Shown piece after piece: positions 36,190 through 58,298 of a stretch of DNA of 64,000 bases; the stretch's first letter is position 1, and each line of letters starts with the position of its first letter. A model generated the notes under the pieces. That model was not told where the DNA came from. It ran no database searches and saw only the letters and a list, made by a program, of their open reading frames with translations. The stretch is from Protonemura montana (lineage: Eukaryota; Arthropoda; Insecta; Plecoptera; Nemouridae). Position numbers and translations under genes: made by a program. The stretch is taken from positions 16,712,535 to 16,776,534 of the forward strand of contig OX387608.1 of NCBI GenBank assembly GCA_947568835.1, read 5' to 3'.

Positions 36190-36578
36190 CCGATTTAAAT
36201 TGCAAACGCTTGCAATGCGTGGAGTATTTTATTATAATCAACACTATAAACGTCTCAAAAATTGATGTCTAAACGGGGACTCGAACCCCGATCTCCACCT
36301 GTCGCGGGTGTTGCTCTAACCAATTGAGCTACTTGGACCCCGATCTCCACCTGTCGCGGGTGTTGCTCTAACCAATTAAGCTTCTTGGACCCCGATCTCC
36401 ACCTGTCGCGGGTGTTGCTCTAACCAATGAAGCTACTCGGACCCCGATCTCCACCTGTCGCGGGTGTTGCTCTAACCAATTAAGCTACTCGGAACCCGAT
36501 CTCCACATGTCGCGGGTGTTGCTCTAACCAATTAAGCTACTCGGACACTGGCTTTTTGAGACGATTTCAGTATATTTT
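36190..36578 (-). mobile_element. tRNA-array foldback element, five tRNA-like units
   Basis: Left arm with the palindrome TTGCAAACGCTTGCAA and ACACTATAAACGTCTCAAAA; right arm TTTTTGAGACGATTTCAGTG. Between the arms, read on the minus strand, five tandem 52-bp tRNA-like units (A box TAGCTCAATTGGTTAGAGCA). Only the last has a T arm with a B box (GGTTCGAGTCCCCG). A tail-only piece in the opposite orientation follows at 36583-36680. Confidence 0.8.
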
Positions 36579-36680
36579 TATTGGTGTAGCCCGTTTGGGC
36601 ATCAATATTTGAGACGGTTATTGTTCATAATAATAAAATACTTGATTTGTATCGACTTGCAAGTGCTTGTGTCTTTGGGA

Positions 36681-36997
36681 AAGGTCTCGGCCGGCCTGGT
36701 CTCGGCATGGTTACACGATGGCGGATCTATATTTGCATCTAGTGCAGATTCAGCGCATAGGACGGTCCAATGATCGAGTTAAACTGCTGATGGAGCAGCT
36801 TGTGTACGCGCCAATCTCGGTCTTGTCTGGCAGGTATGGGTAGATGGTCGGCCAATTAATCGGTAGTAGATATGGAATGGATATCTAGAAGATCTAGATC
36901 TTAGGGATCTATAGGGATCCCATAGAAGATAGAAGATCTATAGGGCAGCGACCCAGTCCTGCCAAAAAATATTGAATATCGCCTTATTTGTACTCTG
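36681..36997. other. No gene seen
   Basis: Contains a short AGATCTAT-rich scramble at 36880-36950; otherwise unassigned. Confidence 0.4.
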
Positions 36998-37292
36998 TAT
37001 AGGGGAGGAGGGGTCTAAAAGTCTCAGGGGCTAGTTGTCTCAGTGTTAAAATATCGACTCGGTGTCTGAGACAACTAGACCCACGCGTGGAGTTAAAAGT
37101 CTCAAACACTTTTAGGTCAACTAAGTGACATAGCAATTCAACTGATGGTCTAATAAATCGCAAAAAAAATCACATTATAACCAAATGTGTATTAATCTAT
37201 AAAAAAAATAAAACATACGAATAACTTCATTTTTCTGGAAGATATGCACATATAGGTAGATTTTGAGACAACTAGACCCCTCCTCCCCTATA
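36998..37292. mobile_element. MITE with 20-bp perfect inverted ends and TA target
   Basis: TATAGGGGAGGAGGGGTCTA at the left and its exact reverse complement at the right. The outer TA on each side fits a TA target duplication, as in Tc1/mariner-type elements. The sub-terminal word GAGACAACTAGACCC is repeated near 37066 and 37264. Non-coding. Confidence 0.75.
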
Positions 37293-37696
37293 ATATATTA
37301 TTTCACTTCCTGAGTATATGCATTTTACAAAATAAAGAAAATTGAATTGAATTGCCGATTTTTATCGGATATGCAACCCGTTCACGGGTTCGGAATACCC
37401 GGGGGACGCCAGTAAAACCAGGAAACTTTGCACGGAAATGTAAACTGTTTAATTTATTTTTTTATATCCCTAGAAAACGTTGTTTCTATTACTAGCAAAA
37501 ATGGCTGAGATGCCAAAATGTCACATTGTCTATACAGGAATAAAATTAGGTTCCCAAGACAACGACGAGTTTAAGTTTAACGACGCTCAATGGTTTGACG
37601 ACCGAGCGCTCTCATGATGTCGTTAAACACGTGGTGATGTTGATAATGATGATGTACTTTCTCGTTGAACTGTAAGCGTGCTGTAAGTTTCTGCCT

Positions 37697-37808
37697 GTAA
37701 TGAGATGTTTCTGAGATGTAATGAGATGTAATGAGATGTAATGAGATGTAATGAGATGTTTCTGAGATGTAATGAGATGTAATGAGATGTAATGAGATGT
37801 AATGAGAC
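37697..37808. repeat. 10-bp minisatellite (ATGAGATGTA)n
   Basis: About eleven copies with two TTTC-containing interruptions. It gives a spurious repetitive frame on the minus strand. Confidence 0.9.
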
Positions 37809-38240
37809 GTTTCACAAGGTACAGAACTAGAGCCAAGTTATATTGTAAATAATTATAATTAATTGTAAATAATTGCAATAACGAAATAAAAGTACAAATT
37901 ATTGCTGAAAAACTTGGTTGAGTATTTTCTAACAAATGAAACTTAAAAAGTAATTGAATTATTTAAACTTTGACAAATCTAAGATTGAATCTGTCACATT
38001 ATCCAAGTTTTTTATTCTGAACTTGAATCCAGCAAACAGTGGGGAAAGAAAGAAAAAAAAAGAATTAACAACAACGCATTTTGTTTTGCTCTGAAAGACA
38101 ATCCACTGATTCTCACTTCTTCAAATTGTGAACTCGACAAAAATTTGATCGAACATTTTTTTTTTGTTTTAATGTTAATCATGGAACAAAACACATTAAA
38201 AAAAAGGCACCGCGCTTCAGATTTGTTAGTTTAATTAAAC
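37809..38240. other. Intron DNA, no gene seen
   Basis: AT-rich, no supported feature. Confidence 0.4.
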
Positions 38241-38250
38241 AAATATAATG

Positions 38251-38364
38251 CGCAGCTGCGCGGTGTCAGCTGCGCGGTGTCACGTGCGCGGTGTCAGCTG
38301 CGCGGTGTCACGTGTGCGGTGTCAGCTGCGCGGTGTCAGCTGCGCGGTGTCAGCTGCGCGGTGT
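38251..38364. repeat. 14-bp minisatellite overlapping the end of Z14
   Basis: Tandem GCGGTGTCAGCTGC units with a few variant copies. The array runs into the coding end of Z14 and supplies its last residues and stop. Confidence 0.9.
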
Positions 38365-38547
38365 GTATTCTGCGCATGTGCTCGACCAGGTGGTACTTGA
38401 CGCGTGCGCGGTACGGACAGAGTACGCACGGGAACTGCGCGTCCATTCCACACTCAAATGTCACGTGACGGTGCAGACTCTGCGCGTGACTGTACGACCT
38501 GCCACATTGTGCGCAGCCATGACGCAGACGTGCGCGGCTCGACGCAG
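38336..38547 (-). CDS. lola: lola-like zinc-finger terminal exon Z14
   Basis: Acceptor TTCTGTTCCAG, phase 1 entry. Fingers CAQCGRSY ... HVTFEC and CVLCPYRA ... HMRRIH. The tail TAQLTPRS and the TGA stop are made by two units of the 14-bp repeat; because 14 is not a multiple of 3, the second unit is read in a new frame and gives the stop. Sister of Z13 (finger 1 nearly identical). Confidence 0.85.
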
Positions 38548-38756
38548 CTGGAACAGAAACACAGGTCAGGGCAAGAATATATAAAAAAATAAATAAAAAA
38601 GAATTTATAAGAGAATTGAAAAATTATGCACGTTTTACACCATTTCTATGAGATGAAATACGATGCAATTATCTTTATTTTTGGGAATAAATTGAAAAAA
38701 ATTGGAAAAAAAAAAATTGAAAAAAGTTGGCCATTCTATCACGTTTCTGGTTCTGC

Positions 38757-39283
38757 CAGCCATGACGGTTCTAAATGTTGCCCGGTGTACATCGACTCTG
38801 CCATGACGGTTCTAAATGTTGCCCGGCGTACATCGACTCTGCCATGACGGTTCTAAATGTTGCCCGGTGTACATCGACTCTGCCATGACGGTTCTAAATG
38901 TTGCCCGGCGTACATCGACTCTGCCATGACGGTTCTAAATGTTGCCCGGTGTACATCGACTCTGCCATGACGGTTCTAAATGTTGCCCGGTGTACATCGA
39001 CTCTGCCATGACGGTTCTAAATGTTGCCCGGCGTACATCGACTCTGCCATGACGGTTCTAAATGTTGCCAAGTGTACATCGACTCTGCCATGACGGTTCT
39101 AAATGTTGCCCGGTGTACATCGACTCTGCCATGACGGTTCTAAATGTTGCCCGGCGTACATCGACTCTGCCATGACGGTTCTAAATGTTGCCCGGCGTAC
39201 CATCGACTCTGCCATGACGGTTCTAAATGTTGCTAGGCGTACATCGACTCTGCCATGACGGTTCTAAATGTTGCCCAATATTA
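38757..39283. repeat. 41-bp minisatellite
   Basis: About thirteen copies, unit TGCCATGACGGTTCTAAATG plus TTGCCCGG(T/C)GTACATCGACTC. Lies between Z13 and Z14. Confidence 0.95.
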
Positions 39284-39284
39284 T

Positions 39285-39415
39285 AGTTTATTTGATATTA
39301 TTTTGAGATACCCAACCATTTTGGCAATTTTTTTTGATAACATAATTACAATGGAATTTAAAGTTAAGTTTATCATCAATAATTATACCAAGGTATTTAA
39401 ATTCACCAATGGCGG
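39285..39415 (-). pseudogene. LINE reverse-transcriptase scrap
   Basis: The minus strand reads GEFKYLGIIIDDKLNFKFHC, the KYLG motif region of Jockey/CR1-type reverse transcriptases, and little else. It happens to be in frame with sequence past the stop of Z13, which makes a misleading longer frame. Confidence 0.65.
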
Positions 39416-39427
39416 TTCGTGGGGTGG

Positions 39428-39612
39428 TCAGAGTAGGTTCAGGTGTTGACTGCGCATGTGCCTGGCCAGGTGGTACTTGGTACGTGCGCGGTGAGAACAG
39501 AAAGTGCACGGGTACTGCGCATCAATGCCACACTCCAAGGAAAGGTGACGGTGCAGACTCTGGGCGTGGTTGTAGGATCTGCCGCATCGAGCGCATGCGT
39601 GACGTCTGCCTC
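39428..39612 (-). CDS. lola: lola-like zinc-finger terminal exon Z13
   Basis: Acceptor CACCTGTTCTAG, phase 1 entry, stop TGA. Fingers CARCGRSY ... HLSLEC and CTFCSHRA ... HMRSQH, tail LNLL. Finger 1 shares NHAQSLHRH/SHAQSLHRH with Z14, so the two arose by local duplication. A LINE scrap begins 13 bp beyond the stop. Confidence 0.86.
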
Positions 39613-39764
39613 CTAGAACAGGTGAGACACAATAAGTTGTGATCTCGAATAACCTGGATTATTTATTTATTTATTTGTGGTGTTTAACGACGCACAGTTT
39701 TGACAACGTGCCGCAGGGCACTGGTCTGATGACGTCGGTGAATGAATGGATGATGATGAACCTA

Positions 39765-40412
39765 ACCTAGCGTAGAAGGGAAGAGGGGAAACTCGGTGCC
39801 GGCACGTAGCCTACTCCTGTCGAAGACCAAGGGGACCACCGGCTTAACGTCCCTGCCGAAGGATGGTACAACTCGAACAACAGGATTCCTCCACAAATCC
39901 ATGCTGTCGAGAGGTTGATAAGCAAGGCGAGTGAAGTTGTTGTACTAACTTTCATCTCTTCAACCTCTCTCCCGAACAGAACTGGTCTTGTGTATGATGG
40001 CCACCCATCCAATACCTGACCCGGCGCAGTGTGGCTTAACTTTCATCCACCAAACCTCTCTCCCGAACAGAACTGGTCATGTGTATGATGGTCACCCATC
40101 CAATACCTGACCCGGCGCAGTGTTGCTTAACTTTCATCCCTCCAACCTCTCTCCCGAACAGAACTGGTCATGTGTATGATGGTCACCCATCCAATACCTG
40201 ACCCAGCGCAGTGTTGCTTAACTTTCATCCCTCCAACCTCTCTCCCGAACAGAACTGGTCATGTGTATGATGGTCACCCATCCAATACCTGACCCAGCGC
40301 AGTGTTGCTTAACTTTCATCCCTCCAACTTCTCTCCCGAACAGAACTGGTCGTGTGTATGATGGCCACCCATCCAATACCTGACCCAGCGCAGTGTTGCT
40401 TAACTTAGGTGA
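39765..40412 (-). mobile_element. 5S-rRNA-headed SINE, five heads
   Basis: Five tandem ~91-bp 5S-derived heads (40412 down to about 39950; GGATGGGTGACCATC or GGATGGGTGGCCATC in each), then the body to about 39765. Best example in the window of head multiplication in this family. Confidence 0.78.
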
Positions 40413-41095
40413 TCTAACGAGAACTGGTGTTGCCAACACGCCAAAATTGGTTTTGGAACCTTCATGCCAGCTGTTTTAAAAAACGCCAGCAAACAGATTT
40501 TGAAGCCTGACCCAAAAATGTCATCCGAAACGGCACATGCATAACAAGCGAAGAAAAACACAGAAGAAAACCCGTGACAAAAAGTAAAAACATTGATAGC
40601 AGGGAATGAAAGGAAACAAAAACGATACAATATCAAAGATTGTTTAATGCATGTTGATGTTTACCCAAATAATCAAATAAATAACTCTAAGATTTATTTT
40701 TTATTTTTTTTCGATAAAACTTCATGGCACATTTTTTTTTAATTTGATTTCGAAAGGTGCTTTGAAGTTCCAGGAAATAAATCGGGTTAAAAAGTCAATT
40801 ACAAAAACAATAAAATTAGTTGTGATATGAGTATTCAACGTGGTCAGTTTTCTGTCATAATAGACAGATGCGTTTTGAATGGAGACCTATACTTTATAAC
40901 GAGTCAACGCTGTCAACTTATCCCGGCAAACACATTCAAGGCTTAAAGCTGTAATTGAGATTCACTTTAACAAAAGTTTATAAGTAAGAAATCCACTAAC
41001 TAAATATTGCAACATAGATTTTGAAGTCAAGTACATGAAGCAGTAATGCAATCATTACAATAAATAATTTGAATTTCCAAACTGCCTCATAATGG
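40413..41095. other. Intron DNA, no gene seen
   Basis: AT-rich, no supported feature. Confidence 0.4.
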
Positions 41096-41432: not shown

Positions 41433-41719
41433 AAATTGTTAACAAACTTCCTCTTCGCTGCTAACATAATGGCACAAAATGACCCTCCTGGTCTGTCAAT
41501 ACTTGTTTCCCACAACACAATGCGTGATAACAGGAGCAGCTAGGCACAAGAACACCGAACCAATCGCATCTCCGAACGACCATACAATAAAATAGCCTGC
41601 GGTAGACCAAAAAAAAAAAACTCTAAAATACCGCAATATAAAGATTGCTAAAAATACTTGGAAGACAATGGAAAATCGAAATAACTTTCCTGAATACTTT
41701 CAATACATATATGTCATAA

Positions 41720-42097
41720 ATACAATAAAATCGTCTCAAAAATCAAGTGTCCAAGTGGCTCAATTGGTTAGAGCAACACCCGCGACAGGTGAAGATCGGG
41801 GTCCAAGTAGCTCAATTGGTTAGAGCAACACCCGTGACAGGTGGAGATCGGGGTCCAAGTAGCTCAATTGTTCAGAGCAACACCCGCGACAGGTGGAGAT
41901 CGGGGTCCAAGTAGCTCAATTGGTTAGAGCAACACCCGCGACAGGTGGAGATCGGGGTCCAAGTAGCTCAATTGTTCAGAGCAACACCCGTGACAGGTGG
42001 AGATCGGGGTTCGAGTCCCCGTTTGGGCATCACATTTTGGAGACGGTTATAGTGTTCATAATAAAATACCACGCACATTGCAAGCGTTTGCAAAAAT
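41720..42097 (+). mobile_element. tRNA-array foldback element, five tRNA-like units
   Basis: Plus-strand copy. Left arm ATAAAATCGTCTCAAAAA, five tRNA-like units, a single T arm GGTTCGAGTCCCCG then the 3' half of an acceptor stem TTTGGGC, right arm TTTTGGAGACGGTTATAGTG, and the palindromic TTGCAAGCGTTTGCAA end. The last unit can fold as a full tRNA-like cloverleaf (GTCCAAG pairs with TTTGGGC, allowing G-T). Confidence 0.82.
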
Positions 42098-42449: not shown

Positions 42450-42842
42450 GTGGCTAGTTTTAACAAAAACTATTTCAACTGGGTTTTGAATGCTAAGTGA
42501 AGAACAACTAAATTTCCCAAAGTTTCGTAACTTGTACCTGTTACTTTATCAAGTGTTAGAGCAGTCCTGACAATTTTCCGATAGCAAAATTCCAACCGCG
42601 TAAAATTTTAACAATTATCTAGTTCAAGCTTCCTAAATGCACCTAAATTTCATCTAAATTTTAGATGCATTTAGGAAGCTTGAACTTGGTAATTGTTAAA
42701 ATTTTATGTGGTTCTTTAGTCATCGGAAAATTGTCAGGACTGCTCTTACCCTTGATAAAGTAACAGGTACAAGTTACGAAACGTTGGGAAATTTAGTTGT
42801 TCTTCACTTAGCATTCAAAACCCAGTTGAAATAGTTTTTGTA
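42450..42842. mobile_element. Penelope-like terminal repeat, inverted pair
   Basis: Antisense copy (42450-42650) followed by a sense copy (42655-42842), making a near-perfect long palindrome. It ends only about 15 bp from the stop codon of Z12, inside its 3' UTR. Confidence 0.75.
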
Positions 42843-42857
42843 AATTGCTTGCGCTCT

Positions 42858-43072: not shown

Positions 43073-43116
43073 CTGGAAGAGGCAAGAGTCGAGGTTAGCT
43101 GGGGTCGGCGTTACAT

Positions 43117-43533: not shown

Positions 43534-44462
43534 ATAACTGTATTTTATTAATATTACTTCGATGTACTATCCTGACGATTCCTAACAGGATTCATGGCTT
43601 GTAAATATTATTTTTATTTAAGACAATAAAGGAAATCAATCAATCAATCGTGTTTCTGCAATGCCTTCTAGGAAATCTTTTTTTAAACCCTTTCATTTTC
43701 AGGAAACAAATCACAATTAAAAACAGCCGACACCTATCCTTCCAATAAACTAACAGGCTGATTTTCTACTATTTATTTGGTGAATGCATTCCTGAAAAAA
43801 CTATGGCTGCAAATATTCGAAAAGTTTTGTTTTGGAAAACCAATGGACGAAGGTACAATCACAAGTGTCAGATTTGAAGACAAATGACACGCCCTTGTCA
43901 TAGCTGCATGCCAATAGAACCAGTCAGTTGTGAAAATTGGCTGTCAATTCGAGATGTAGAAGTGTTGATTTGTGATGGGCCAGAAGGATGGGATAGAGAA
44001 TTTGTTGATTGGTAAGGTACAAGTAGAGCGAGGGACTTACCAAGCAAGAATGACAGGTCACGATAATAAGGTGGCAAAGGCAACTGGCCGAAATGTCAAC
44101 CTTCTATCGCGGCCTGCCACTCACCGCTCACCGCTAGTTTTACCTAATCAATCAACCTATTGGTTAACTATTAGTGTATTCGTTTGTAATACACAGTTGC
44201 ACTAAGTATTAGTGTTAAAAATAGTAGGTCTAGTGGTTACAGAGAGAAGTATGCTGATATTATTTGTAATATTTTTGCAATCTAAGAAGAAGTATTAGGT
44301 TTAGCTACAAGTCTAGTGCTTCTGGAGGAACTGAAGCTGGTGACTTTCAAGTTTTTTCTTCGCGAATTGGCCGTCATTTCTTAGCATGCAGCGAGTTTCA
44401 CAGAAATAAGTTAAATAAGTTTCAAGTTTAGCTTCTTTTATGATAGCTAGACCTAATTGTAG
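43534..44462. other. Intron DNA, no gene seen
   Basis: No exon, RNA or clear repeat. A 61-codon minus-strand frame at 43898-44083 has no recognisable content. Confidence 0.4.
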
Positions 44463-44868
44463 ATGAAATCTGATTTAAATTGCAAACACTTGCAATGCCC
44501 GGGGTATTTTATTATTAGCAACACTATAACTGTCTCAAAAAGCCAGTGTCCAAGTAGCTCATTTGGTTAGAGCAACACCCGCGACAGGTGGAGATCGGGG
44601 TCCAAGTAGCTCAATTGGTTTGAGCAACACCCGCGACAGGTGGATATCGGGGTCCAAGTAGCTCAATTGGTTAGAGCAACACCCACGATAGGTGGAGATC
44701 GGGGTCCAAGTAGCTCATTTGGTTAGAGCAACACCCGCGACAGGTGGAGATCGGGGTCCAAGTAGCTCAATTGGTTAGAGCAACACCCGCGACAGGTGGA
44801 GATTGGGGTTCGAGTCCCCGGTTGATCATAAATTTTTGATACGGTTATAGTGTTCATAATAATAAAAA
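44463..44868 (+). mobile_element. tRNA-array foldback element, five tRNA-like units, long arms
   Basis: Five tRNA-like units with a T arm only on the last. In this copy the left arm is the long form (TTGCAAACACTTGCAA, then TTTTATTATTAGCAACACTA), so the two arms together form an extended inverted repeat rather than the 20-bp one of other copies. Confidence 0.8.
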
Positions 44869-45194
44869 AAAAACTAGACCTAATCTTTTGTCCATGCTAC
44901 AAAAATCACATACATATTTTTATTTGATGCATTTCACTGCACTTTTACAGTGAATCCAATAAGTTACAACGACATGTGCAGCAAAGGACAGCAGTGACGA
45001 CAATAGATAATGCACGACAGTTTTCATTTGCAACCTCTGGACTGAACTAGTTACGGATGCCTCGACTGCCACCCAGCCAAGAAATCCAGTACAAACCGTC
45101 CAGTTCCGGTCAGATCAGTTCGAAGAAAAACACAAATTTAGGTAAAATAGTTCTACCAGACAATTTCAAGATCAAAGTATTTCAAAAAAGTTTC
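44869..45194. other. Intron DNA, no gene seen
   Basis: Nothing supported. Confidence 0.4.
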
Positions 45195-46311: not shown

Positions 46312-46637
46312 CTAGATTGTATCTTCAGGGTAAGTAACAACCCTGGCCATGACAGCCGCATCCGCAGCGAGGTGCTGCGCAGGTTCAGGCGCTGGAAAGC
46401 GCAGCCCGTCCAGCCGATGCGTTCTACGCACATGCGTGCGCAGGTTACTTTTTTGATGTGCGCGATACGGACACAGAGGGCAGCCATATTGCGGTGGTTT
46501 GCCGCACTCGTGACGCTCGTGTTTGTTCAGGTCTTGCTTGAACTTGTAATGGCGGCCGCAGGCGGCGCAGTGAAACCGACCGAGCAGCGTCGAGAAGGCG
46601 GTGGCTTTCGTGAAGCGCATGCGCGGCACGTAGTTGC
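46312..46637 (-). CDS. lola: lola-like zinc-finger terminal exon Z11
   Basis: Acceptor TCAATTCCAG, phase 1 entry, stop TAG. Long exon: linker NYVPRMRFTKATAFSTLLG, fingers CAACGRHY ... HERHEC and CPLCPYRA ... HVRRTH, then a 34-residue Ala/Pro-rich tail. A SINE head begins a few bases beyond the stop, so its 3' UTR consists largely of transposon. Confidence 0.88.
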
Positions 46638-46831
46638 CTGGAATTGACAAGAATGCGTGTCAAGCTGTGGAGTGTTCGACTGGAATGGATATTGGCTCGC
46701 TGACGTCACGCTTTCCACTGGGTTTGTTAATATAAATATTAACAAACAAACCAACACAAACAAAGCATCAACACCAAACAAATGAAGCGTTAATTTTCTA
46801 CCTTTAGAAGCAAACAGTTACATGAACACGA

Positions 46832-47185
46832 AATTGCAAACGCTTGCAATGCGCGGAGTATTTTATTATTATGAACACTATAACCGTCTCAAAAATTGAT
46901 GCCCAAACGACGACTCGAACCCTGATCTATGATCAGGGATCTATGATCCTGATCTACCCTGTGTTGCTCTAACCAATTGAGCTACTTGGACCCCGATCTC
47001 CACCTGTCACGGGTGTTGCTCTAACCAATTGAGCTACTTGGACCCTGATCTCCACCTGTCGCGGGTGTTGCTCTAACCAATTGAGCTACTCGAACCCCGA
47101 TCTCCACCTGTCGTGGGTGTTGCTCTAACCAATTGAGCTATTCGGACACTAGCATTTTGAGACGATTTTAGTGTATTTGATGAGA
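46832..47185 (-). mobile_element. tRNA-array foldback element, four tRNA-like units
   Basis: Both arms present (ACACTATAACCGTCTCAAAA; TTTTGAGACGATTTTAGTG). Four tRNA-like units; the one carrying the T arm is disturbed by a small local GATCTATGATC duplication (46921-46950). Confidence 0.78.
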
Positions 47186-48000
47186 ATGACAGTTCTCCAA
47201 GGAGTAGAACCAAGAGGCTGTGAATACTCACAGTCACTCTGATTCTAGTGACGCTATATCACGTCACAACCTGTCAATCTCGAGTAACTTCAAATTGACG
47301 TTGGATTCGTTATTTTATTTAGATGAAATCTTATTTAAATTTAATTAAATTTGACAAAGTTCAATAAAAGAGCACGTTCCGATACAGTTTTCCATTCAAC
47401 ACAACACATGTAGGTACCTAGCAAAGTAACAAGTTATTTAATTCTGACAGATTCAACTTATAAACAACACACAACGTTGCCAACACAAGAAAAAATGAAG
47501 CCAAGAAATAAATGCAAAAAAATGAATGCAACCCAAGTACAAATCCAGAAATAATAAAGACAAACGATCGGGAAAGATAATTAAAGTCACAAGAGTTTTT
47601 ATTTCAGTCAGAGCACTTTTTAAACAAATACAATCAATTGTTTTGATAACAATGAAAGAAATCGGTGAAAACATTCTGTAGCAAAAACGTGGAACTTTGT
47701 TACCAAGCTTTGAGGTCAATGAACTGAAAGCAAGAATAAATGTGTCTATTTCATCTTATTCCTTTTCACCGGATATGAGTTCACCGGATATACTACATAA
47801 GCTACAAAATGAGAATCACAAGACAATTTCAAAGAAAGTCTAAACTTGAGGAAAACAGGATATAAAACCAGGTTCGAAGCTCGATTACAAGACAATGCGA
47901 AGGTAAATGCAGCGAAATATGGTTCGGAAGAAAGTCGACTCAATAGAAATGAAGATATTTCATTAAAACACACTTTTGACTCAAAATTAATGTAATTAAC
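47186..48000. other. Intron DNA, no gene seen
   Basis: AT-rich, nothing supported. Confidence 0.4.
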
Positions 48001-48017: not shown

Positions 48018-48181
48018 TGACAGCTGTCATTACAGTTCACCAGCTGCCATTACAATTTTTACAGCTGTAACTTCATTTCTGACAGCTGTCATTACAGTTC
48101 ACCAGCTGTCATAACAGATTTGACACCTGTCATAAAGTGTTGACAGCTGTCACTCCACTGTTGACAGCTGCGAGGCGTGCA
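48018..48181. repeat. Cluster of TGACAGCTGTCA palindromes
   Basis: Three exact copies of the 12-bp palindrome (48018-48029, 48080-48091, 48141-48152) plus near copies at 48121 and 48172, within short imperfect repeats. The sequence is the known composite site of TGIF/PKNOX-type TALE homeodomain proteins. The third copy contains the stop codon of Z10. Origin as a simple repeat is as likely as a regulatory role. Confidence 0.7.
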
Positions 48182-48397
48182 GCCTAGCGATATGTTTGTT
48201 GAGATCCACACGGCGGTGGGAATGACAGCTGTACGGGCAGTGCGGGCAACGAAGAAGGCGCTGGCGGCCGCATTCAAAGCGGTGGTGCTGCTTTAGCCCC
48301 GAGCGATAGGAGTAAGATCTGCCGCAATCTGCGCATGCGAACTGCCTGGTGGCCAGAGGCTGCCAGGGCTCTGCTGGGCCCTGCCAGGGCGCTCCAC
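48150..48397 (-). CDS. lola: lola-like zinc-finger terminal exon Z10
   Basis: Acceptor TTTGTTTCAG, phase 1 entry, stop TGA. A Pro/Trp-rich linker precedes CADCGRSY ... HHRFEC and CPHCPYSC ... HIARLH. Finger 2 has fourteen, not twelve, residues between its second Cys and first His. The last codons and the stop lie inside the TGACAGCTGTCA repeat cluster. Confidence 0.86.
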
Positions 48398-48507
48398 CTG
48401 AAACAAAAGTCAGCTGGCGGGTCAGAGCTGGCAGGGCGTTAGAACCAGTGCAACAAGAGGCTTGCCTTGCTCTTTCCACAAACAAAATATACCATCACAT
48501 AAAGACA

Positions 48508-49398
48508 TAGGAGGTTCAATAGTAGATTCAATGTTTGGTAGCCATGGAGATGTTGAGATCACCTGACAGAGCTTCTCAATTCTGCTATCTTATGTTACCA
48601 CGGGTATATCATGGCCTAGCATAGGAGGTTCAATAGTAGATTCAATGTTTGGTAGCTATGAAGATGCTGAGATCGCCTGACAGAGCTTCTCAATTCTGCT
48701 ATCTTGTGTTACCACGGGTATATCATGGCCTAGCATAGGAGGTTCAATGGTAGATTCAACGTTAGGCAGCCATGGATACGCTGAGATCGCCCGACTGAGC
48801 TTCTCAATTCTGCTATCTTATGTTACCACGGGTATATCATAGCCTAGCATAGGAGGTTCAATGGTAGATTCAACGTTAGGCAGCCATGGAGATGCTGAGA
48901 TCGCCTGACAGAGCTTCTCAATTCTGCTATCTTGTGTTACTACGGGTATATCATGGCCTAGCATAGGAGGTTCAATGGTAGATTCAACGTTTGGTAGCCA
49001 TGGAGATGCTGAGATCGCCTGACAGAGCTTCTTAATTCTGCTATCTTATGTTACCACGGGTGTATCATGGCCTAGCATAGGAGGTTCAATGGTAGATTCA
49101 ACGTTTGGTAGCCATGGAGATGCTGAGATCGCCTGACAGAGCTTCTTAATTCTGCTATCTTATGTTACCACGGGTGTATCATGGCCTAGCATAGGAGGTT
49201 CAATGGTAGATTCAACGTTTGGTAGCCATGGAGATGCTGAGATCGCCTAACAGAGCTTCTCAATTCTGCTGTCTTATGTTACCACGGGTATATCATGGTC
49301 TAGCATAGGAGGTTCAATGGTAGATTCAACGTTTGGTAGCCATGGAGATGCTGAGATCGCATGACAGAGCTTCTCAATTCTGCTATCTTATGTAGCCA
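48508..49398. repeat. 114-bp minisatellite A, array 2
   Basis: About eight copies of the same unit as at 25.8-27.0 kb, again directly upstream of a finger exon (Z10). Confidence 0.95.
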
Positions 49399-50123
49399 CG
49401 GGTGCAGAATGTCGCTGGCGAATGCTTTGCTCCGGTTCCAAGATTGACCAGAAGTTGAGTTCGAGAGTCACTGCTTCGTTTCTTGTTCAATAAATTCACA
49501 ATGACGATCACGTAGTATTTATTTTAAGATAAATCATATTTCTGTAAATTTTTAGGTACACATTATGAGAATATTTATTATTTTTTTCTTTGGACGCAAC
49601 ATCGTCATCTGGCTCTGGTTACCAGACTCTAAATTCTTCACAATATTCATCATACAGTTCGACATTTAACAACCTCATTCATACACGATTCAATTAGCAA
49701 CGCAGGAAAGTGTACATTGCATTTCTCATTCCAAATAAATAAACTTATAGGTTCACAAAGTCAATGAGTATGATTCCAAGGAACTGCAATTACAAAATCT
49801 AAATTTAAATCTTATGAAAAAGAACCTTCAGGAAAAATGGCCGATCGCACAGTTTTGCTGTGAAATTATCTCATATGAGCCTATGTCCTTCTGTTGTGAA
49901 AAGATAGCGCGATCGACCATTTTGATTTTGACCGGCGAATATTACCATGGACTCGTTCATTCACTTACTGGATCCATTCTGCAATCACAGCAATGTGCAA
50001 TGTGGAGGGCGTTTCAACACCTACAGGTATAAACCGGAAGTGACTAGACCGATTTAAAAGCCGGTAATTCTGTGTAGGTAACAACAATTAGACGCAAGGA
50101 GATCTAAATCGATCAATTTAAAA
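49399..50123. other. Intron DNA, no gene seen
   Basis: Nothing supported; a 72-codon plus-strand frame (49814-50032) has no recognisable content. Confidence 0.4.
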
Positions 50124-50562
50124 TCTGATTTAAATTGCAAACGCTTGCAATGCGCGGGGTATTTTATTATTATCAACACTAAAACCGTCTTAAAATGTGA
50201 TGCCCAAACGGGCGCTCGAACCCCGATCTCAACCTGTCGCGGGTGTTGCTCTAACCAATTGAGCTACTTGCACCCCGATCTCCACCTGTCACGGGTGTCG
50301 CTCTAACCAATTGAGCTACTTGGACCCCGATCTCCGCCTGTTACGAGTGTTGCTCTAACCATTTGAGCTACTTGGACCCCGATCTCCACCTGTCGCGGGT
50401 GTTGCTCTAACCAATTGAGCTACTTGGACCCTGATCTCCATCTGTCGCGGGTGTTGCTCTAACCAATTGAGCTACTTGGACCCCGATCTCCACCTGTCGC
50501 GGGAGTTGCTCTAACCAAATGAGCTACTTGGACACATAATTGTTAAGACGATTTCAGTGTTT
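50124..50562 (-). mobile_element. tRNA-array foldback element, six tRNA-like units
   Basis: Longest copy: six 52-bp tRNA-like units, with one T arm (GCTCGAACCCCG on the plus strand). Arms and the TTGCAAACGCTTGCAA palindrome are intact. It ends about 70 bp from the stop of Z9. Confidence 0.82.
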
Positions 50563-50630
50563 TTTCATTGTTTAAGAAATTTTGATTCCAATTAATAGCC
50601 ATTTGCGCTTAAAATCTGCAAATTTCGTTC

Positions 50631-51398: not shown

Positions 51399-51525
51399 GC
51401 GGGTTGCGTTCAGGGGCACGTGGTGGAGGATCCGTGTTTGTTCTGCGGGTTGCGTTCAAGGGCACGAGGTGGAGGAGCCGTGTTTGTTTTGCGGGTTGCG
51501 TTCAGGGGCACGAGGTGGAGGCTCA
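51399..51525. repeat. 46-bp minisatellite encoding the tail of Z8
   Basis: Three copies spaced exactly 46 bp, unit starting GCGGGTTGCGTTCAGGGGCA. The inner two form the end of the Z8 coding sequence. Confidence 0.9.
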
Positions 51526-51721
51526 TGCGCGTGGATGCGCTTCAGGTGCTGCTTCAGGTTGCCCGGTCGTTTGCACCGGTAAACGCAGTACGGACACTTG
51601 ACCTGGGGCGTTTTACCACACTCGTACGTGAGGTGCGTGCGCAGCCCCCTGCTTCCAGCGTAGCGTGAGGGACAGTTGGGACATGCGTACGGTTTGGCTC
51701 GTTGTCCCCGCGTGGTGAATC
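51456..51721 (-). CDS. lola: lola-like zinc-finger terminal exon Z8
   Basis: Acceptor CTTCCCGCAG, phase 1 entry. Fingers CPNCPSRY ... HLTYEC and CPYCVYRC ... HLKRIH. The roughly 23-residue tail (EPPPRAPERNPQNKH then GSSTSCP) is read from the 46-bp minisatellite; the frame shifts by one per unit and the second unit gives the TGA stop. Confidence 0.85.
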
Positions 51722-51949
51722 CTGCGGGAAGAGAGGGAGTTAGATCTGGGACATCGGGGCGTCGATCTCGGCGCCTTGGTGCTTTGTTGGTGGAAAGAAG
51801 AAAATTATAAAGGTTAACTGGCAGTAAAAAACACTTTCATTGAGCAACAAGTACATTTTTGAGTAAAAGTTTAATTTATCATACATTTACAAGTTACATT
51901 TAAAGCTATTTTTAGCTTTCATAGATTATTTTCGAGCAGTAATTCGGCG

Positions 51950-52580
51950 GTGTTACCGTGGTGCTACATAATACTACCGGTGGTATTATATAACCCCGAC
52001 CTAGGTCGGGGTCACTGCTTGCTGCTATGGTGGTGCTAGTTAGCACGGTGCTACTGACAGTAATACCAGGGTCACTGCTTGGTGCTATGGTGGTGCTAGT
52101 TAGCACGGTGCTACTGACAGTAATACCAGGGTTACTGCTTGGTGCTATGGTGGTGCTAGTTAGCACGGTGCTACTGACAGTAATACCAGGGTCACTGCTT
52201 GGTGCTATGGTGGTGCTAGTTAGCACGGTGCTACTGACAGTAATACCAGAGTCACTGCTTGGTGCTATGGTGGTGCTAGTTAGCACTGTGCTACTGACAG
52301 TAATACCAGGGTCACTGCTTGGTGCTATGGTGGTGCTAGTTAGCACTGTGCTACTGACAGTAATACCAGGGTCACTGCTTGGTGCTATGGTGGTGCTAGT
52401 TAGCACGGTGCTACTGACAGTAATACCAGGGTTACTGCTTGGTGCTATGGTGGTGCTAGTTAGCACGGTGCTACTGACAGTAATACCAGGGTTACGAATC
52501 ACCGCTCTAGGTCGGGGTCACTGCTTGGTGCTATGGTGGTGCTAGTTAGCACGGTGCTACTGACAGTAATACCAGGGTAT
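51950..52580. repeat. 60-bp minisatellite C, array 2, with shared flank
   Basis: About nine copies of the unit found at 35.1-35.9 kb. It has the same left flank (CCGGTGGTATTATATAACCCC at about 51978) and the same interruption (GTTACGAATCACCGCTCTAG). It ends about 20 bp past the stop of Z7, so both arrays occupy the 3' UTR of a finger exon. Confidence 0.95.
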
Positions 52581-52602
52581 CACTAGGGTATTGCTCTGGA
52601 CT

Positions 52603-52799: not shown

Positions 52800-52927
52800 C
52801 TGGGGAAAGAGAGGAAGGCTGTTAGATGAGATCGGCTCTCGGTTCAAAATTTGTTTTAGACTTTTTGACGACGCCCTTTTTTGACAACGAGCAATGAATG
52901 AAAGGGTGATGTTGAAGGTGATGAATC

Positions 52928-53092: not shown

Positions 53093-53433
53093 TTGCTGTC
53101 GAGAGGTTGATAAGCAAGGCGAGTGAAGTTGCTGTCGAGAGGTTGATAAGCAAGGCGAGTGAAGTTGCTGTCGAGAGGTTGATAAGCAAGGCGAGTGAAG
53201 TTGGTGTCGAGAGGTTGATAAGCAAGGCGAGTGAAGTTGCTGTCGAGAGGTTGATAAGCAAGGCGAGTGAAGTTGCTGTCGAGAAGTTGATAAGCAAGGC
53301 GAGTGAAGTTGCTGTCGAGAGGTTGATAAGCAAGGCGAGTGAAGTTGCTGTCGAGAGGTTGATAAGCAAGGCGAGTGAAGTTGTTGTCGAGATGTTGATA
53401 AGCAAGGCGAGTGAAGTTGCTGTCGAGAGGTTG
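53064..53433. repeat. 36-bp minisatellite derived from the SINE body
   Basis: About ten copies of GCTGTCGAGAGGTTGATAAG + CAAGGCGAGTGAAGTT. The same 36 bases occur once in each complete SINE body (for example at about 28565-28604), so the array grew from the SINE. All six frames stay open over long stretches because 36 is a multiple of 3. Confidence 0.92.
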
Positions 53434-53754
53434 ATACACATCTGATCACGCATATTGGCAACTTTTTCAAAGGCAGTAAAAGACGACAAGTCAAATGAGA
53501 AGTAAAAATTATACAGAAAAAAAAATTAGGTACAAATAAGAAAATAATCAAAATTTATAAATTTTTCGAACGTTGCTTTCACATAATGTTAAGACAGGTT
53601 AAGTTTATTCTCTCATTCACAATTCCCACATCGCTCCCGTGGTAACAATCCTCGATCTTTCCTGGCTGGAAGCTCACAATTAAAGCACAGTCAAAGTTTC
53701 ATTTCTTTATTTACAAAAATGTTTTCTTATAATCAGATACCACATCATGCTCGA

Positions 53755-53812
53755 CATCACGTAGCATCCTGACGAGATGCTGCTTCAGATTTCACGGCTG
53801 CCTGCACCGGGG
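53755..53812 (-). pseudogene. lola: Dead zinc-finger exon fragment
   Basis: The minus strand reads RCRQP, an in-frame TGA, then NLKQHLVRM. This is the middle of finger 2 of the Z1-Z8 class (RCK(Q/R)P-x-x-LKQH). The first finger and everything to the right is replaced by a Penelope-like terminal sequence that starts at about 53815. A 21st finger exon destroyed by truncation and a stop. Confidence 0.6.
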
Positions 53813-53814
53813 GC

Positions 53815-54186
53815 GTATTTTGTATTTTTTGTTATTTTGTTATTTACTAATGTATTATGTATTTTTTGAAATAAGATCTCGAACACATTGGCATTTTTTA
53901 ACTAACTAATTATGTGTATGTGTTCGAAAGCTTATTTCAGAAAATACAAAATACACAAGTTTTTAAGTTATTGACCCTGATTATTTTATTTAGATGCATT
54001 TAGGAAGCTTGAACTTGGTAATTGTTATAATTTTGTGTGGTTCTTTTGCTATCGGAAAATTGTCAGGACTGCTCTTACCCTTGGAGAAGTAACTAGTACA
54101 AGTAACGAAACGTTGGGAAATTCAGTTGTTCTTTACTTAGCATTCACAACCCAGTTGAAATAGTTTTTGTTAAAACTAGTGCTAAG
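53815..54186 (+). mobile_element. Penelope-like terminal fragment with short inverted piece
   Basis: Sense-strand terminal repeat (53930-54186) preceded by a short antisense piece (53815-53930). It contains GTAAC ... GTAACGAAACGTTGGG with a decayed hammerhead first box. It separates the dead finger exon from Z6. Confidence 0.7.
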
Positions 54187-54218
54187 ATTTCCCTATTTTA
54201 CCCGGCCACAAAGGCACA

Positions 54219-54430
54219 CTAGAAAGGCAGAGAAGAACAGACGATCTTTTCGTGAATATTCTTGTAGTGTCTCTTTAAACTGCCCGGACGTTTGCAACGG
54301 TATTCACACAAAGAGCACTTGGCTTGGGGCGATTTGCCGCATTCATATTTCACGTGCGTGTTGAGAGTTTGCTGGTACAGGTAGCGCCGGGAACAGTTCT
54401 TGCAACCGAAAGGTTTGACGAGCGCGTCAT
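54219..54430 (-). CDS. lola: lola-like zinc-finger terminal exon Z6
   Basis: Acceptor TTTGTCTGCAG, phase 1 entry, stop TAG. Linker DDALVKPFG, fingers CKNCSRRY ... HVKYEC and CSLCEYRC ... HYKNIH, tail EKIVCSSLPF. The stop lies about 30 bp from a Penelope-like terminus, so the 3' UTR is disrupted or replaced. Confidence 0.88.
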
Positions 54431-55675
54431 CTGCAGACAAAGAATAGACAGACCATCAAGCTAGGTCGTTGTTTGCACACAACATGACGCGTTACTTTGC
54501 AAAAATATATTTATAAAATAAAATAAAATGCACATGTGTCAAAATCGCGGATTTCTTGCCATAGCGGTTCGTGCAGAGTTGGCGCAATATAACCACTAGG
54601 TTGAGGCGCCGTTAAGCCATAATATTCATTCATTCATTCAGTAAAAAAAAGAACGAGAAGAAGAAAACAAGACTAGGTAACAAAATGTGTAAAGATTAAG
54701 AGACGTATTGTAAGTAAATTCAAGTAAAACACCAACTGGCTCTTTGTGATGACAAATCACCAACCAAAGTTGTATACATGCAATCCAATTTTTTAAATAT
54801 ATTTTTTTTGACTTTCAACATTTTTTTATGCCAGTAATAACAACATTATAGCAATGAAACTATATGAGCTCTCACAGAATTCTATTGTCTTTGCAATGAC
54901 ATTTATTTAAAGTCTGTGGCACGTTGCGTTCTCGAATTAATTGGTCAAAACTATGCAAATGCGCGAAATAATCACGTTTTGACTCGAGTTTTCAAGCTCG
55001 CTTGATGCAAACGGATTGATATTTTTTTTTCATTGTAGATAAACTTAAAATACAATAATAAATACATAAATAAATAATAAAATATAGGATTAAAATAAAG
55101 GAACAATTAATTAATTAATTAGCTCTGGAAGTTAAGAGGTCTGGTGCCAGCTAAATGAACCACTAAGCCGAGATAGACAGTGGCAACTTTTAACAAAAGC
55201 ACAGTTGCTTGCCGTCCATTCTTGTGCACCCAAAGTTTATCTTGAGATTTGTCATCTTCGTCAGCCTCACTGTACCCGCCAGGGATTCGAATATGAAGAC
55301 GGTGTCAATGCAAATGCAAATGGTTTTATTATTAACTGTCATTTCATAATATCAACAAATCAACAAATGCATACAAAGGAGGATGTCTCAGGATCGGGGT
55401 CAGTAAGAAACTGCTATTGTTTGGTGAGGATTCGGAAAGGGACTTACATATTTTCCTTTTCTGCTGTGTTTAGGGTTTTTCATCAAAGCTACAAAAAAAA
55501 AGCGATCAATTTGAATTTAATTTTTAACACATTTACACGGCGTTTTGGTTTGCGATCAAAAATACTTTAAAATAATTTTTTTGTATGATAAAATTACATT
55601 TTTTATTACAATTGAACCAGTTGAGGAATAATGATACACTTCAGTTAGGTAATTTTTTAAATTTTTTATTAGAAT
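54431..55675. other. Intron DNA, no gene seen
   Basis: About 1.2 kb of AT-rich DNA. A 121-codon plus-strand frame at 55205-55570 has no recognisable content and poor codon quality. Confidence 0.4.
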
Positions 55676-55856
55676 GAAATCTCAATTAAATTGCAAACGC
55701 TTGCAATGCACGGGGTATTTTACACCATAACCGCCTCAAATATCGATGCCCAAACGCGGACTCGAACCCCGATCTCCACCTGCCGCGTGAGTTGCTCTAA
55801 CCAATTAAGCTACTAGGACACTGGTTTTTTGAGACGATTTTAGTGTATTTGATGAG
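55676..55856 (-). mobile_element. tRNA-array foldback element, one tRNA-like unit
   Basis: Single tRNA-like unit (ACTCGAACCCCGATCTCCAC ... CAATTAAGCTACTAGGACAC on the plus strand) between the two arms. It shows the basic, unmultiplied form of the family. Confidence 0.8.
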
Positions 55857-56009
55857 AATCAAATGAGAATTGATGTAAATCTTTGAATGTTTAGCTTTAA
55901 ATAGATCCAAACTCTGTCCATATCGTGGTAATAGATTTCTTGGAAAATAGTTTTGAAAACCACTTTCTAGGCTTCCAGTTGGCTAGGTACGGATCTCCTG
56001 ACCGCCCAA

Positions 56010-56209
56010 TCACAAGTCCACGCCATGGACTTTCTTGCAGTGCTTCTTGAGGTCCCACGGTTTCTTACATCGATACACGCACAGCGGGCACTGCGTCTGC
56101 GCGGGTTTCCCACACTCGTACTTTAGGTGGGAGTTGAGTCCTCGACGGTGAACGTAACGCTGGGGGCACTTGTTGCACGCGAAGCGTTTGGCAAGGGCGA
56201 GTGCCGCGT
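56010..56209 (-). CDS. lola: lola-like zinc-finger terminal exon Z5
   Basis: Acceptor CTCTTCTCAG, phase 1 entry, stop TGA. Linker AALALAKRFA, fingers CNKCPQRY ... HLKYEC and CPLCVYRC ... HCKKVH, tail GVDL. Ends in the same VDL as Z3 and Z4. Confidence 0.9.
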
Positions 56210-56804
56210 CTGAGAAGAGAGAGCAAGAAGATGTTAGTTGGGGTCAATGAATGCTATCTAAGGTAAGCCAAGTGTAGATTGCAATCGATAGAAAGGTACA
56301 GCATCATGAGTTTATTTTTAAGTTTAAAACTCACAAATTAATACACATTTTATTAAAAATTTGATTATTATTATTATTTTACTATAAAATGAATACGAGT
56401 ATAAAATAAACATTTATTATAATATATAATAATAATAACATTATAACAATACTATAATATTATAAATATTATTTATTGACATATATTTCATGTGATTACA
56501 AGCAAATTTGCATAGAAGTTTTCCTGAAATATATGTTAGCACGCTGTGTTGATGTGGAAATGAATAATATTATCACTAAGAATATCCTGATTAGCATTTT
56601 TGATGAATAAATAGAAAACAGAAAATGCAGGATGCGACAGCGGGAAGTGTAAGGTAAGCAAAGAAGGTAAATACAGCGAGGAAATTAAGATGCAAACAGA
56701 GAACTGCATTCCTAGGGATGTGGGTTCAATCATTCTAAATAGCCAGGCCAGTATTAACAAGTCTAAATGAAAGGCAACTGCAGGTAAAGATGACAATAAC
56801 AAAA
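56210..56804. other. Intron DNA, no gene seen
   Basis: AT-rich with ATAAT-rich runs; nothing supported. Confidence 0.4.
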
Positions 56805-56965
56805 ACTATTTAAACTGCTTTTACTCTTGATAAATTAATAGGTACAAGTAACGAAACGTTGGGAAATTAAGTTGTTCTTCACTTAGCATTGAAAACCCAG
56901 TTGAAATAGTTTTTGTTAAAACTAGTGCTAAGTTTACATCAAGTAGACATGAGTCTAAAAACTTT
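56805..56965 (+). mobile_element. Penelope-like terminal fragment
   Basis: Sense copy from CTTGATAAATTAATAGGTAC to GACATGAGTCTAAAAAC. Non-coding. Confidence 0.65.
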
Positions 56966-57159
56966 CATTAGGTGACAATAAAATCATTTGATTTGCTCAG
57001 GACCAAGTTACGCTAGAACGTAGCCGACATTTTGTCAAGATTTACCAGTTTGTTCAGACCAAAGGTCAATGCAACGAAAACCACTTTGTGCTCCAAACGG
57101 TCTTTTACCCGATTTTATATTTTATATTTTTATAGATTCGCCCAGTCTTGCAGTTCGGC

Positions 57160-57235
57160 TTTCACCCTTGATAAAGAAACTGGTACAAGTTACAAAACGT
57201 TGGGAACAATTTGACTTTTCACATGCCCTTAAGAA
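57160..57235 (+). mobile_element. Diverged Penelope-like terminal scrap
   Basis: CCTTGATAAAGAAACTGGTA ... AAAACGTTGGGAACA: the hammerhead-like region of a related subfamily. A similar scrap lies at 58135-58195. Confidence 0.5.
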
Positions 57236-57279
57236 TTATTGTAAACTCTTTTAATACCAGATTAGTCTGGACCTAACTA

Positions 57280-57479
57280 TTATAGGTCAACTTTATGGAC
57301 TCTCCTGCCGTGCTTCTTCAGATCCCACGGCTGTTTGCACCGGTATTCGCAAGTTGGGCACTTGAACTGTGGCGATTTACCGCACTCATATCTTTGATGG
57401 ACCCGGAGGCTGCTTTGACAGGAGTAGCGTCGAGGGCACTTGTCGCACGCGAAGGGTTTGGCAAAGCCGAACGCCAAGT
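57280..57479 (-). CDS. lola: lola-like zinc-finger terminal exon Z4
   Basis: Acceptor TCTTCCCGCAG, phase 1 entry, stop TAG. Linker GFAKPFA, fingers CDKCPRRY ... HQRYEC and CPTCEYRC ... HGRRVH, tail KVDL. Of 65 residues, 54 match Z3; most differences lie in the finger 2 helix. Confidence 0.9.
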
Positions 57480-58134
57480 CTGCGGGAAGAGAGGGTTTTA
57501 GTTGGGGTCAGAGATTTTTTTTTGTAAAATCGTCTCGGGCAGTCTTAGCCAAAGAACATAAAACAGCATCATGCACGAGTACTCAAACTTTTGTGTGTTT
57601 GAATGATTGTGGAATAAACACACAAACAAATAATATTACAATAATAACAAAAATAACAAAATGTAATATTACAATATTTATTTAAAATGTATACTAAGTT
57701 ATATTGATGAAAAAGTACAGCGCTCAGGTTTGCTGGTTCTGCTGGTCGGTGCTCGGGCAGGAATGCCGTCCCACTTCACTGACTTCTCAAGCGATGCATC
57801 ATTTCGCTCTCAATTCTAGACTCTATAGTTCCTGCCGTTGTTAAAGCATCAATTTGCATCTTGCACAACCATTTGTTTAACAACACTTCGTAATTACCAT
57901 ATCCATAATCATAAATATTATTAATAAGAAATTGTTTTTTATAATATAGATCAGTAAGCTAGACCTTAATGGTCAACCAGATATTTGGATAGCTGTCGAT
58001 TGCTTAATAAATTGATTTTCCTCCTTGTAAGTCACAATTTCAGAGTAACGAGGAAAAATAATACAACTACGGCTAGACATTGTGCAAAGATAGGTTACAA
58101 TAGATTTTGTCACAGTAACTCGAGTCAGTCGATC
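57480..58134. other. Intron DNA, no gene seen
   Basis: Nothing supported. Confidence 0.4.
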
Positions 58135-58195
58135 TTTCAACGTTGATAAAGTAACTGGTACACGTTACCAAACGTTGGGGACAAAGCTTGACTTC
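58135..58195 (+). mobile_element. Diverged Penelope-like terminal scrap
   Basis: GTTGATAAAGTAACTGGTAC ... CAAACGTTGGGGACA, like the piece at 57160. Confidence 0.5.
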
Positions 58196-58198
58196 TTT

Positions 58199-58298
58199 TC
58201 ATTATTATGAACACTATAACCGGCTCAAATTTGATGCCCAAACGAGACGGTTATAGTGTTCATTCATAATAATAAAATGCCCCGCGAATTGCAAGCGT
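58199..58298. mobile_element. Foldback element arms without tRNA units
   Basis: The two arms (ATTATTATGAACACTATAACC and GAGACGGTTATAGTGTTCAT) face each other across about 20 bp that include ATGCCCAAAC, with no tRNA-like unit left. The right end carries ATTGCAAGCGTTTGC. Its right edge is fused to a LINE fragment. Confidence 0.75.

What the first reader, a model, noticed from the sequence alone, without database searches (positions are those of the whole stretch)
36190..58298. Foldback elements carrying tandem truncated tRNAs, 0 to 6 units per copy
Seven copies share inverted arms (ACTATAACCGTCTCAAAA) and a TTGCAAACGCTTGCAA end. Between the arms lie 6, 5, 5, 5, 4, 1 or 0 tRNA-like units of 52 bp. 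Each unit has an A box, but only the last has a T arm with a B box and an acceptor 3' strand. The joint lies at a GGGGTCC shared by the T stem start and the tRNA start. This is neither a normal SINE nor a normal MITE: a tRNA array inside inverted arms with many A boxes and one B box.
Basis: seen in the sequence. Interest (0 to 1): 0.8.

Follow-up and report, generated by a model that had tools for sequence, protein, structure and literature searches.

The report
tRNA-carrying foldback retroposons resembling Penelope elements
A large family of short jumping sequences in what looks like an insect genome carries a tRNA-like gene and lands as a folded-back double copy, with the same anatomy as Penelope retrotransposons in that genome, so it offers many examples of a poorly understood way of jumping.

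Summary
The interpretation changes. The outer ends are a 47-nt hairpin tail (h) and an A/TAA-rich end. Of 51 distinct copies tested, 29 have target duplications above the null's 99th percentile, mostly 8-15 bp: a retroposon, not a cut-and-paste foldback.

Each two-armed insertion joins opposed cDNAs, one starting at the tail, the other at the A-rich end 47 nt inside it; 54 copies gave 52 different junctions. Intact Penelope-like elements in the same genome, and short Penelope terminal-repeat foldbacks in this window, have the same anatomy, including a 48-nt hairpin tail on one end. I read the family as a non-autonomous Penelope-type retroposon whose repeat holds a tRNA cloverleaf where Penelope's holds a hammerhead-like core. 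They share no detectable sequence, so the partner is unproven.

The tandem tRNAs are a secondary minisatellite: 1 of 80 head-selected loci has one, arrays reach 66 units, and duplicated copies of one insertion have 4, 4 and 8.

The parts
36171..36648 (-). copy 1 with its 8-bp target duplication CTTGATTT (36171-36178 and 36641-36648): tail/h 36184-36222, a-arm 36225-36270, five tRNA units within 36271-36546, l-arm 36547-36577, opposite short arm 36590-36640
41718..42093 (+). copy 2: l-arm, five tRNA units ending in a full tRNA, a-arm, truncated tail h1-h25; no target duplication seen by eye, not in the automatic test (head too short)
44447..44884 (+). copy 3 with its exact 11-bp target duplication CTAGACCTAAT (44447-44457 and 44874-44884): inverted h and a, then l, five tRNA units, T arm, a and A-rich tail
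46831..47341 (-). copy 4: truncated h, a, four tRNA units plus one degenerate, l, s and the start of a second h (partial tandem of the 331-bp unit)
50121..50564 (-). copy 5: h, a, six tRNA units, l; no target duplication found (score 5)
55667..55859 (-). copy 6: h, a, one tRNA, l; no target duplication found (score 6)
58197..58302 (.). copy 7: opposed a-arms joined inside the tRNA T arm, truncated h, no tRNA unit left
16034..16468 (.). foldback of the Penelope terminal repeat: tail end at one side, A-end at the other
   Evidence: duplication score 7, within the null
29625..29753 (.). short foldback of the Penelope terminal repeat, A-end / tail
   Evidence: no duplication found (score 5)
60538..60953 (.). 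foldback of the Penelope terminal repeat, tail / A-end, duplication score 11
42456..42844 (.). foldback of the Penelope terminal repeat with A-ends on both sides (exception), no duplication found (score 4)
53846..54186 (.). opposed pieces of the Penelope terminal repeat, end types undetermined, not given to the duplication test
20726..21749 (-). 3' part of a Penelope-like element: terminal repeat 20726-21027 and GIY-YIG-type ORF 21072-21749
   Evidence: the ORF type was recognised by eye, Pfam gave no hit

Best explanation
The feature is a non-autonomous Penelope-type retroposon family. Shown: the unit is 331 bp (h 47, s 134, l 36, tRNA 52+23, a 39); copies end at h on one side and, where a second arm is present, at an A/TAA-rich end on the other; more than half of the copies tested have target duplications, mostly 8-15 bp; two-armed copies join one arm from the tail end and one opposed arm from the A-rich end at a point that nearly always differs; Penelope elements in the same genome have the same anatomy. 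Inferred: the RNA is read in the tRNA sense and ends at the tail. A Penelope-type enzyme nicks both strands at AT-rich sites. One 3' end primes a cDNA at the RNA's tail end, the other primes a second cDNA at the internal A-rich site 47 nt upstream. Each cDNA runs a variable distance, often stopping in the tRNA's T arm, and the two are joined, giving a foldback. Tandem 331-bp units and tRNA arrays are extra: the arrays grow and shrink as a 52-bp minisatellite after insertion.
For: Target duplications: 29 of 51 distinct copies score 9 or more, against a 99th percentile of 8 and a maximum of 9 in 306 mismatched pairings. A 57-bp insert of tail plus TATTTTATAA, and a tail plus (TAA)n insert, each with a duplication. 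Junctions: 54 head-selected copies with both arms gave 52 different coordinate pairs; the two arm ends are independent (Spearman -0.01, p 0.95; within 20 nt of each other 17, 14.7 expected). The arms share the 3-nt allele next to the A-rich end in 23 of 29 scorable copies, 9.3 expected, p below 5e-5. Arm ends in the 23-nt T arm/acceptor: 17 tail-side and 24 A-side of 54, 3.8 expected if uniform. Penelope: an 856-aa open frame with direct and inverted terminal repeats (L109) and a second copy with another junction (L110); 48-nt hairpin tail on one side only, A-rich other end; short Penelope foldbacks, 8 of 12 with tail/A-end; 8 of 12 Penelope inserts tested score 9 or more for duplications, null maximum 8. 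Published Penelope anatomy matches: inverted pLTR, short one-sided tail, 8-10 bp duplications, partial tandems (PMC3846280, passages and Discussion).
Against: No sequence similarity between the family and this Penelope's terminal repeat or tail. No hammerhead found in the family. 22 of 51 copies score below 9, and at least three of the 29 (L006, L025:4492, L042:833) are low in complexity or lie away from an A-rich end. Two inserts with duplications, L005 (14 bp) and L039 (8 bp, low complexity), have no A-rich end. Two pairs of insertions with different flanks share junction coordinates (L073/L105, L075/L076), so an inherited junction is not excluded there. Exceptions among Penelope foldbacks: one A/A and one tail/tail. 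Penelope junctions are near-palindromic in 7 of 10 (difference up to 20, read), unlike this family, so the joining step may differ. A LINE with twin priming could give similar products; no LINE partner was excluded.
Confidence: 0.67

Rival explanations
1. SINE-like retroposon moved by a LINE, with very frequent twin priming (5' inversion) at the internal A-rich site.
For: Duplication lengths, A/TAA-rich end and inversion with mostly copy-specific junctions all fit twin priming as described for L1 (listing only; mechanism from general knowledge). One window ORF (17658-18425) looks LINE-like by eye; Pfam gave no hit.
Against: In 47 of 54 copies with both arms the tail-side cDNA runs past the second priming site, so the arms overlap in sequence, unlike simple twin priming on one RNA. 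The Penelope elements of the same genome already show this anatomy, including a 48-nt one-sided tail.
Confidence: 0.18
2. Stable foldback RNA: a master palindrome is transcribed from h to the A-rich end and reverse transcriptase jumps across the hairpin, deleting the centre.
For: Natural account of one fixed end plus an A-rich 3' end. Arms are mostly from the same source. A first, hand-entered test of 38 copies gave a small median difference between the arm ends (p 0.0004), though no rank correlation. Two pairs of independent insertions share junction coordinates.
Against: The larger automatic set shows the arm ends independent, with no excess near equality. 52 different junctions in 54 copies. 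L005 ends inside the tRNA with an exact 14-bp duplication and no A-rich end.
Confidence: 0.09
3. Cut-and-paste DNA transposon of the foldback/MITE type that captured tRNA genes.
For: Inverted arms; many copies.
Against: Duplications of variable length, unequal ends, A/TAA tails of variable length at one end only.
Confidence: 0.03
4. The tRNA arrays are the working part: multiple A boxes drive pol III transcription or TFIIIC binding.
For: Thousands of exact tandem joints; tRNA parts score as tRNA in Rfam.
Against: 1 of 80 head-selected loci has a joint; T5 follows the tRNA in 71 of 89 sites; duplicated copies of one insertion differ in unit number; repeated variants within a 65-unit array.
Confidence: 0.03

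Closest known systems
Penelope-like elements (PLEs) with pseudo-LTRs (PMC3846280; same-genome L109/L110)
   Same: Inverted terminal repeat at one side, a short extension on one end only (31 bp published, 48 in L109, 47 in the tRNA family), partial tandems, target duplications, AT-rich targets, differing inversion junctions.
   Different: The tRNA family encodes no protein, shares no detectable sequence with this PLE, has no hammerhead core found and carries a tRNA cloverleaf on a long stem instead. Its arm ends are independent, while 7 of 10 Penelope foldbacks are near-palindromic.
Metazoan non-LTR retrozymes (PMC7761336, passages only)
   Same: Short non-coding units that can be tandem, structured RNA, proposed to be moved by PLEs.
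   Different: Retrozymes carry a hammerhead ribozyme, which was sought and not found; the unit is 331 bp against about 150-300 bp.
tRNA-derived SINEs moved by LINEs (general knowledge)
   Same: tRNA-like part with A and B boxes, A/TAA-rich end, target duplications.
   Different: The tRNA is internal in the unit and followed by a T5 stretch in most sites; two-armed insertions are opposed double cDNAs; the tail hairpin lies on the other end.
Twin-primed L1 insertions (general knowledge; search listing)
   Same: Inverted 5' segment, copy-specific junction, target duplication.
   Different: Here 54 of 73 head-ended loci (80 less seven with internal heads) have a recognised opposed arm, counting the duplicate L095 as not scored, and the two segments overlap in sequence in 47 of 54.

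Membership tests
Penelope-like elements, as a non-autonomous member | target duplications of variable length | tested here: met
   29 of 51 copies; 8 of 12 PLE inserts
Penelope-like elements, as a non-autonomous member | inverted terminal-repeat arm beside the direct arm | tested here: met
   54 of 80 head-selected loci scored with both arms; 18 had none recognised, 7 had internal heads, 1 was a duplicate
Penelope-like elements, as a non-autonomous member | short extension (tail) on one end only | tested here: met
   h, 47 nt; PLE tail 48 nt
Penelope-like elements, as a non-autonomous member | partial tandems of the repeat | tested here: met
   L009, L043, L048, window 46831
Penelope-like elements, as a non-autonomous member | ends that match an autonomous PLE in sequence | tested here: not met
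   only the family of L109/L110 was compared, plus L111, whose kind is uncertain
Penelope-like elements, as a non-autonomous member | RT and GIY-YIG ORF | tested here: not met
   judged from size: inserts run from 57 to about 700 bp (3.6 kb with a long array); expected for a non-autonomous element
Penelope-like elements, as a non-autonomous member | hammerhead motif in the terminal repeat | tested here: not met
   12 motif hits, all followed by the PLE repeat sequence, none in the family; Rfam (Rfam also missed the PLE core)
Metazoan retrozyme | hammerhead ribozyme in the unit | tested here: not met
tRNA SINE | pol III promoter at the 5' end driving the whole element | tested here: inconclusive
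   the tRNA is internal and T5 follows in 71 of 89 sites; transcription not measurable here
MITE / foldback DNA transposon | equal inverted ends and a target duplication of fixed length | tested here: not met

The most novel reading that the evidence does not exclude
The tRNA cloverleaf sits on a stem of about 20 bp, 39 nt from the A-rich end, near where the genome's Penelope repeat has its hammerhead-like core (about 60 nt from its A-rich end). In this reading it took over the hammerhead's job: host RNase P and RNase Z, or a block to reverse transcriptase at the tRNA fold, define the RNA or cDNA ends. This would be a Penelope-type parasite that swapped a ribozyme for a tRNA.
Probability: 0.15. 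Interest if true: 0.8.

Novelty: new variant of a known kind. Interest (0 to 1): 0.62.

Why it matters
How Penelope elements make their inverted terminal repeats is an open question; the paper read here (PMC3846280, Discussion) reads palindromes at the junction as self-priming but leaves it open. This family gives many short insertions in which both ends and the junction can be read. In 54 of them the two arms end independently, which speaks for two separate priming events rather than a snap-back in this family, and the question becomes testable by counting. Word searches for a tRNA-bearing Penelope-type or foldback element listed none (titles and abstract starts of an open-access library only).

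Tried and rejected
A LINE partner was looked for from two window ORF regions and their 3' ends and from RVT_1 places (150 of 1,781 candidates scored, places not compared by sequence); nothing matched the A-rich end, but the search was shallow. Known ribozymes: none in the family. Rfam also missed the Penelope hammerhead-like core, which I found only with a typed motif. An RT stop exactly at tRNA position A58 was considered from repeated ends at T7; the larger set spreads over T6-T22, so I dropped it. The hairpin-jump idea was my second reading; the first test was hand-entered, and the larger automatic set overturned it. In one search two further allele tests were weak: 7 of 10 agreed with 4.5 expected (p 0.09), and 2 of 6 with 1.5 expected (p 0.51). 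A window Penelope fragment compared with the unit gave nothing. L111, taken as a second Penelope family from its 40% match, gave no related end and was not pursued. The species was not identified; 'insect-like' rests on recalled lola-type zinc-finger exons. An earlier wording that all junctions differ was wrong: two pairs share coordinates. I lowered the main odds by 0.01 and raised the stable-foldback rival by 0.01 for that.
Full report
OBSERVATION. The window is part of a 258-Mb, 34-contig eukaryotic genome. The exact 18-nt arm occurs 3,076 times genome-wide, with 1 for the pattern read backwards, the exact tandem tRNA joint 8,394 times, the exact tRNA 3' end 744 times and the exact 34-nt head 1,375 times. 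These are exact-match counts and so lower bounds.

ANATOMY. Reading 20 targeted 10-kb loci and the window, and then 80 loci chosen only by an exact head among the first 100 places listed, all on contig 1, I find one repeating unit of 331 bp, in tRNA sense: s (134), l (36), tRNA (52+23), a (39, ending AATAATAAAATA) and tail h (47 nt, hairpin TTGCAA-GCGT-TTGCAA). Folded, they form a long stem with the tRNA cloverleaf on top (-54 kcal/mol). Seven of the 80 heads lie inside a tandem of units.

INSERTION SIGNATURE. An insertion begins at h, read inward in the antisense direction, and most end at the A/TAA-rich end of an opposed arm. Of 51 distinct copies with a terminal head, 29 have duplication scores of 9 or more, against a 99th percentile of 8 and a maximum of 9 in 306 mismatched pairs. 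Most matched cores run about 8-15 bp; in 28 curated cases the flanks are A-rich on one side and T-rich on the other. Twenty-two copies score lower, and at least three of the 29 are low in complexity or misplaced (L006, L025:4492, L042:833). Very short inserts exist: tail plus ten bases (L030) and tail plus (TAA)n (L044). L005, with an exact 14-bp duplication, and L039, with a weaker 8-bp one, lack the A-rich end.

JUNCTIONS. Of the 80 head-selected loci, 7 have internal heads, 18 no recognised opposed arm and one (L095) is duplicated DNA of L078; 54 remain. They give 52 different junction coordinates. L073/L105 share one, where l runs into the A-rich end through l/a homology; L075/L076 share GCGGACATCAA and then differ. 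Their flanks match at only 13 and 11 of 40 bases, so these are independent insertions and an inherited junction is not excluded. A 24-mer check in the same call is of little use, since some alignments stop short of the true junction and old copies differ too much. The ends of the two arms are independent (Spearman -0.01, p 0.95). The ends cluster in the tRNA's T arm and acceptor: 17 and 24 of 54, with 3.8 expected under uniformity. This expectation ignores the nearness to the start points, though the nearer segment a holds fewer (6 and 9 of 54, before L047 was restored). The arms agree in the 3-nt allele beside the A-rich end in 23 of 29 scorable copies (9.3 expected). In the earlier, largely targeted set it was 11 of 18 with 4.3 expected, so some copies mix sources.

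LINK TO PENELOPE. A GIY-YIG-type ORF in the window (21072-21749; recognised by eye) has 153 matches in the genome, 150 of 324 candidates having been scored. L109 holds an 856-aa open frame with direct terminal repeats and an inverted one beside them; L110 is over 99% identical with a different inversion junction. Both have a 48-nt hairpin tail on one end, an A-rich other end, and duplications. Short foldbacks of this Penelope's terminal repeat lie in the window and loci: of 12, eight have tail/A-end, one A/A, one tail/tail and two are undetermined. Of 12 Penelope inserts tested (10 foldbacks, L109, L110), eight score 9 or more, null maximum 8 in 132 mismatched pairs. The published anatomy agrees (PMC3846280, passages and Discussion; PMC8969392, passages). 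The family and this Penelope share no detectable sequence, so the link is one of anatomy, not of ancestry shown.

TRNA AND ARRAYS. In the Penelope repeat a hammerhead-like core (recognised with a recalled motif) lies about 60 nt from the A-rich end; none was found in the tRNA family. The tRNA family has its tRNA 39 nt from the A-rich end. T5 follows the tRNA in 71 of 89 sites found by pattern. Arrays are the exception: 1 of 80 head-selected loci has one, although five of seven window copies do. Three copies of one insertion in duplicated DNA (L018, L019, L020; shared flanks and duplication) have 4, 4 and 8 units, and the neighbouring insertion 7, 6 and 17. The longest array seen has 66 units; of its 65 units that could be split out, 18 are distinct. 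This is minisatellite behaviour.

VERDICT. Works like a Penelope element: likely. Member of the Penelope order: probable but not proven, because sequence homology to the Penelope compared and the hammerhead were tested and not met. Novelty: a new variant of a known kind, with good material for testing how inverted terminal repeats arise.

Noticed in passing
window 4182-62800 (table), e.g. 25770-27038 and 48506-49403 (114 bp), 30303-30957 and 33269-34048 (47 bp), 35107-35736 and 52009-52492 (60 bp), 28616-28895 and 39946-40406 (91 bp): Four unrelated minisatellite families each occur in two separate parts of the window, as if they too sit inside mobile elements.
   Followed up: no
window 46312-46659, 48150-48494, 51456-51836 and 29846-30355, minus strand: Repeated C2H2-type zinc-finger ORFs that look like alternative exons of an insect lola-type gene (name recalled; Pfam zf-C2H2 for the one submitted, 51456-51836).
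   Followed up: partly
L012, L019, L022, L024: Seven 5S rRNA matches in four of the seven 10-kb loci searched: dispersed 5S genes or a 5S-derived repeat.
   Followed up: no
L018 1837-2040; L019 7743-7947; L027 2990-3194: An old relative, 62-66% identical, keeps the s-l-tRNA-a order, so the tRNA has been in this family for a long time; L018/L019/L027 may be one insertion in duplicated DNA.
   Followed up: partly
contig C1 0.5-1.4 Mb and 30-31.3 Mb (first 100 places listed): Exact tandem tRNA joints crowd near the ends of contig 1; none is listed between 1.36 and 19.04 Mb, whereas heads are spread more evenly (first 100 places).
   Followed up: no
window 7246-7689, minus strand: Serine-protease exon (Trypsin, Pfam).
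   Followed up: no
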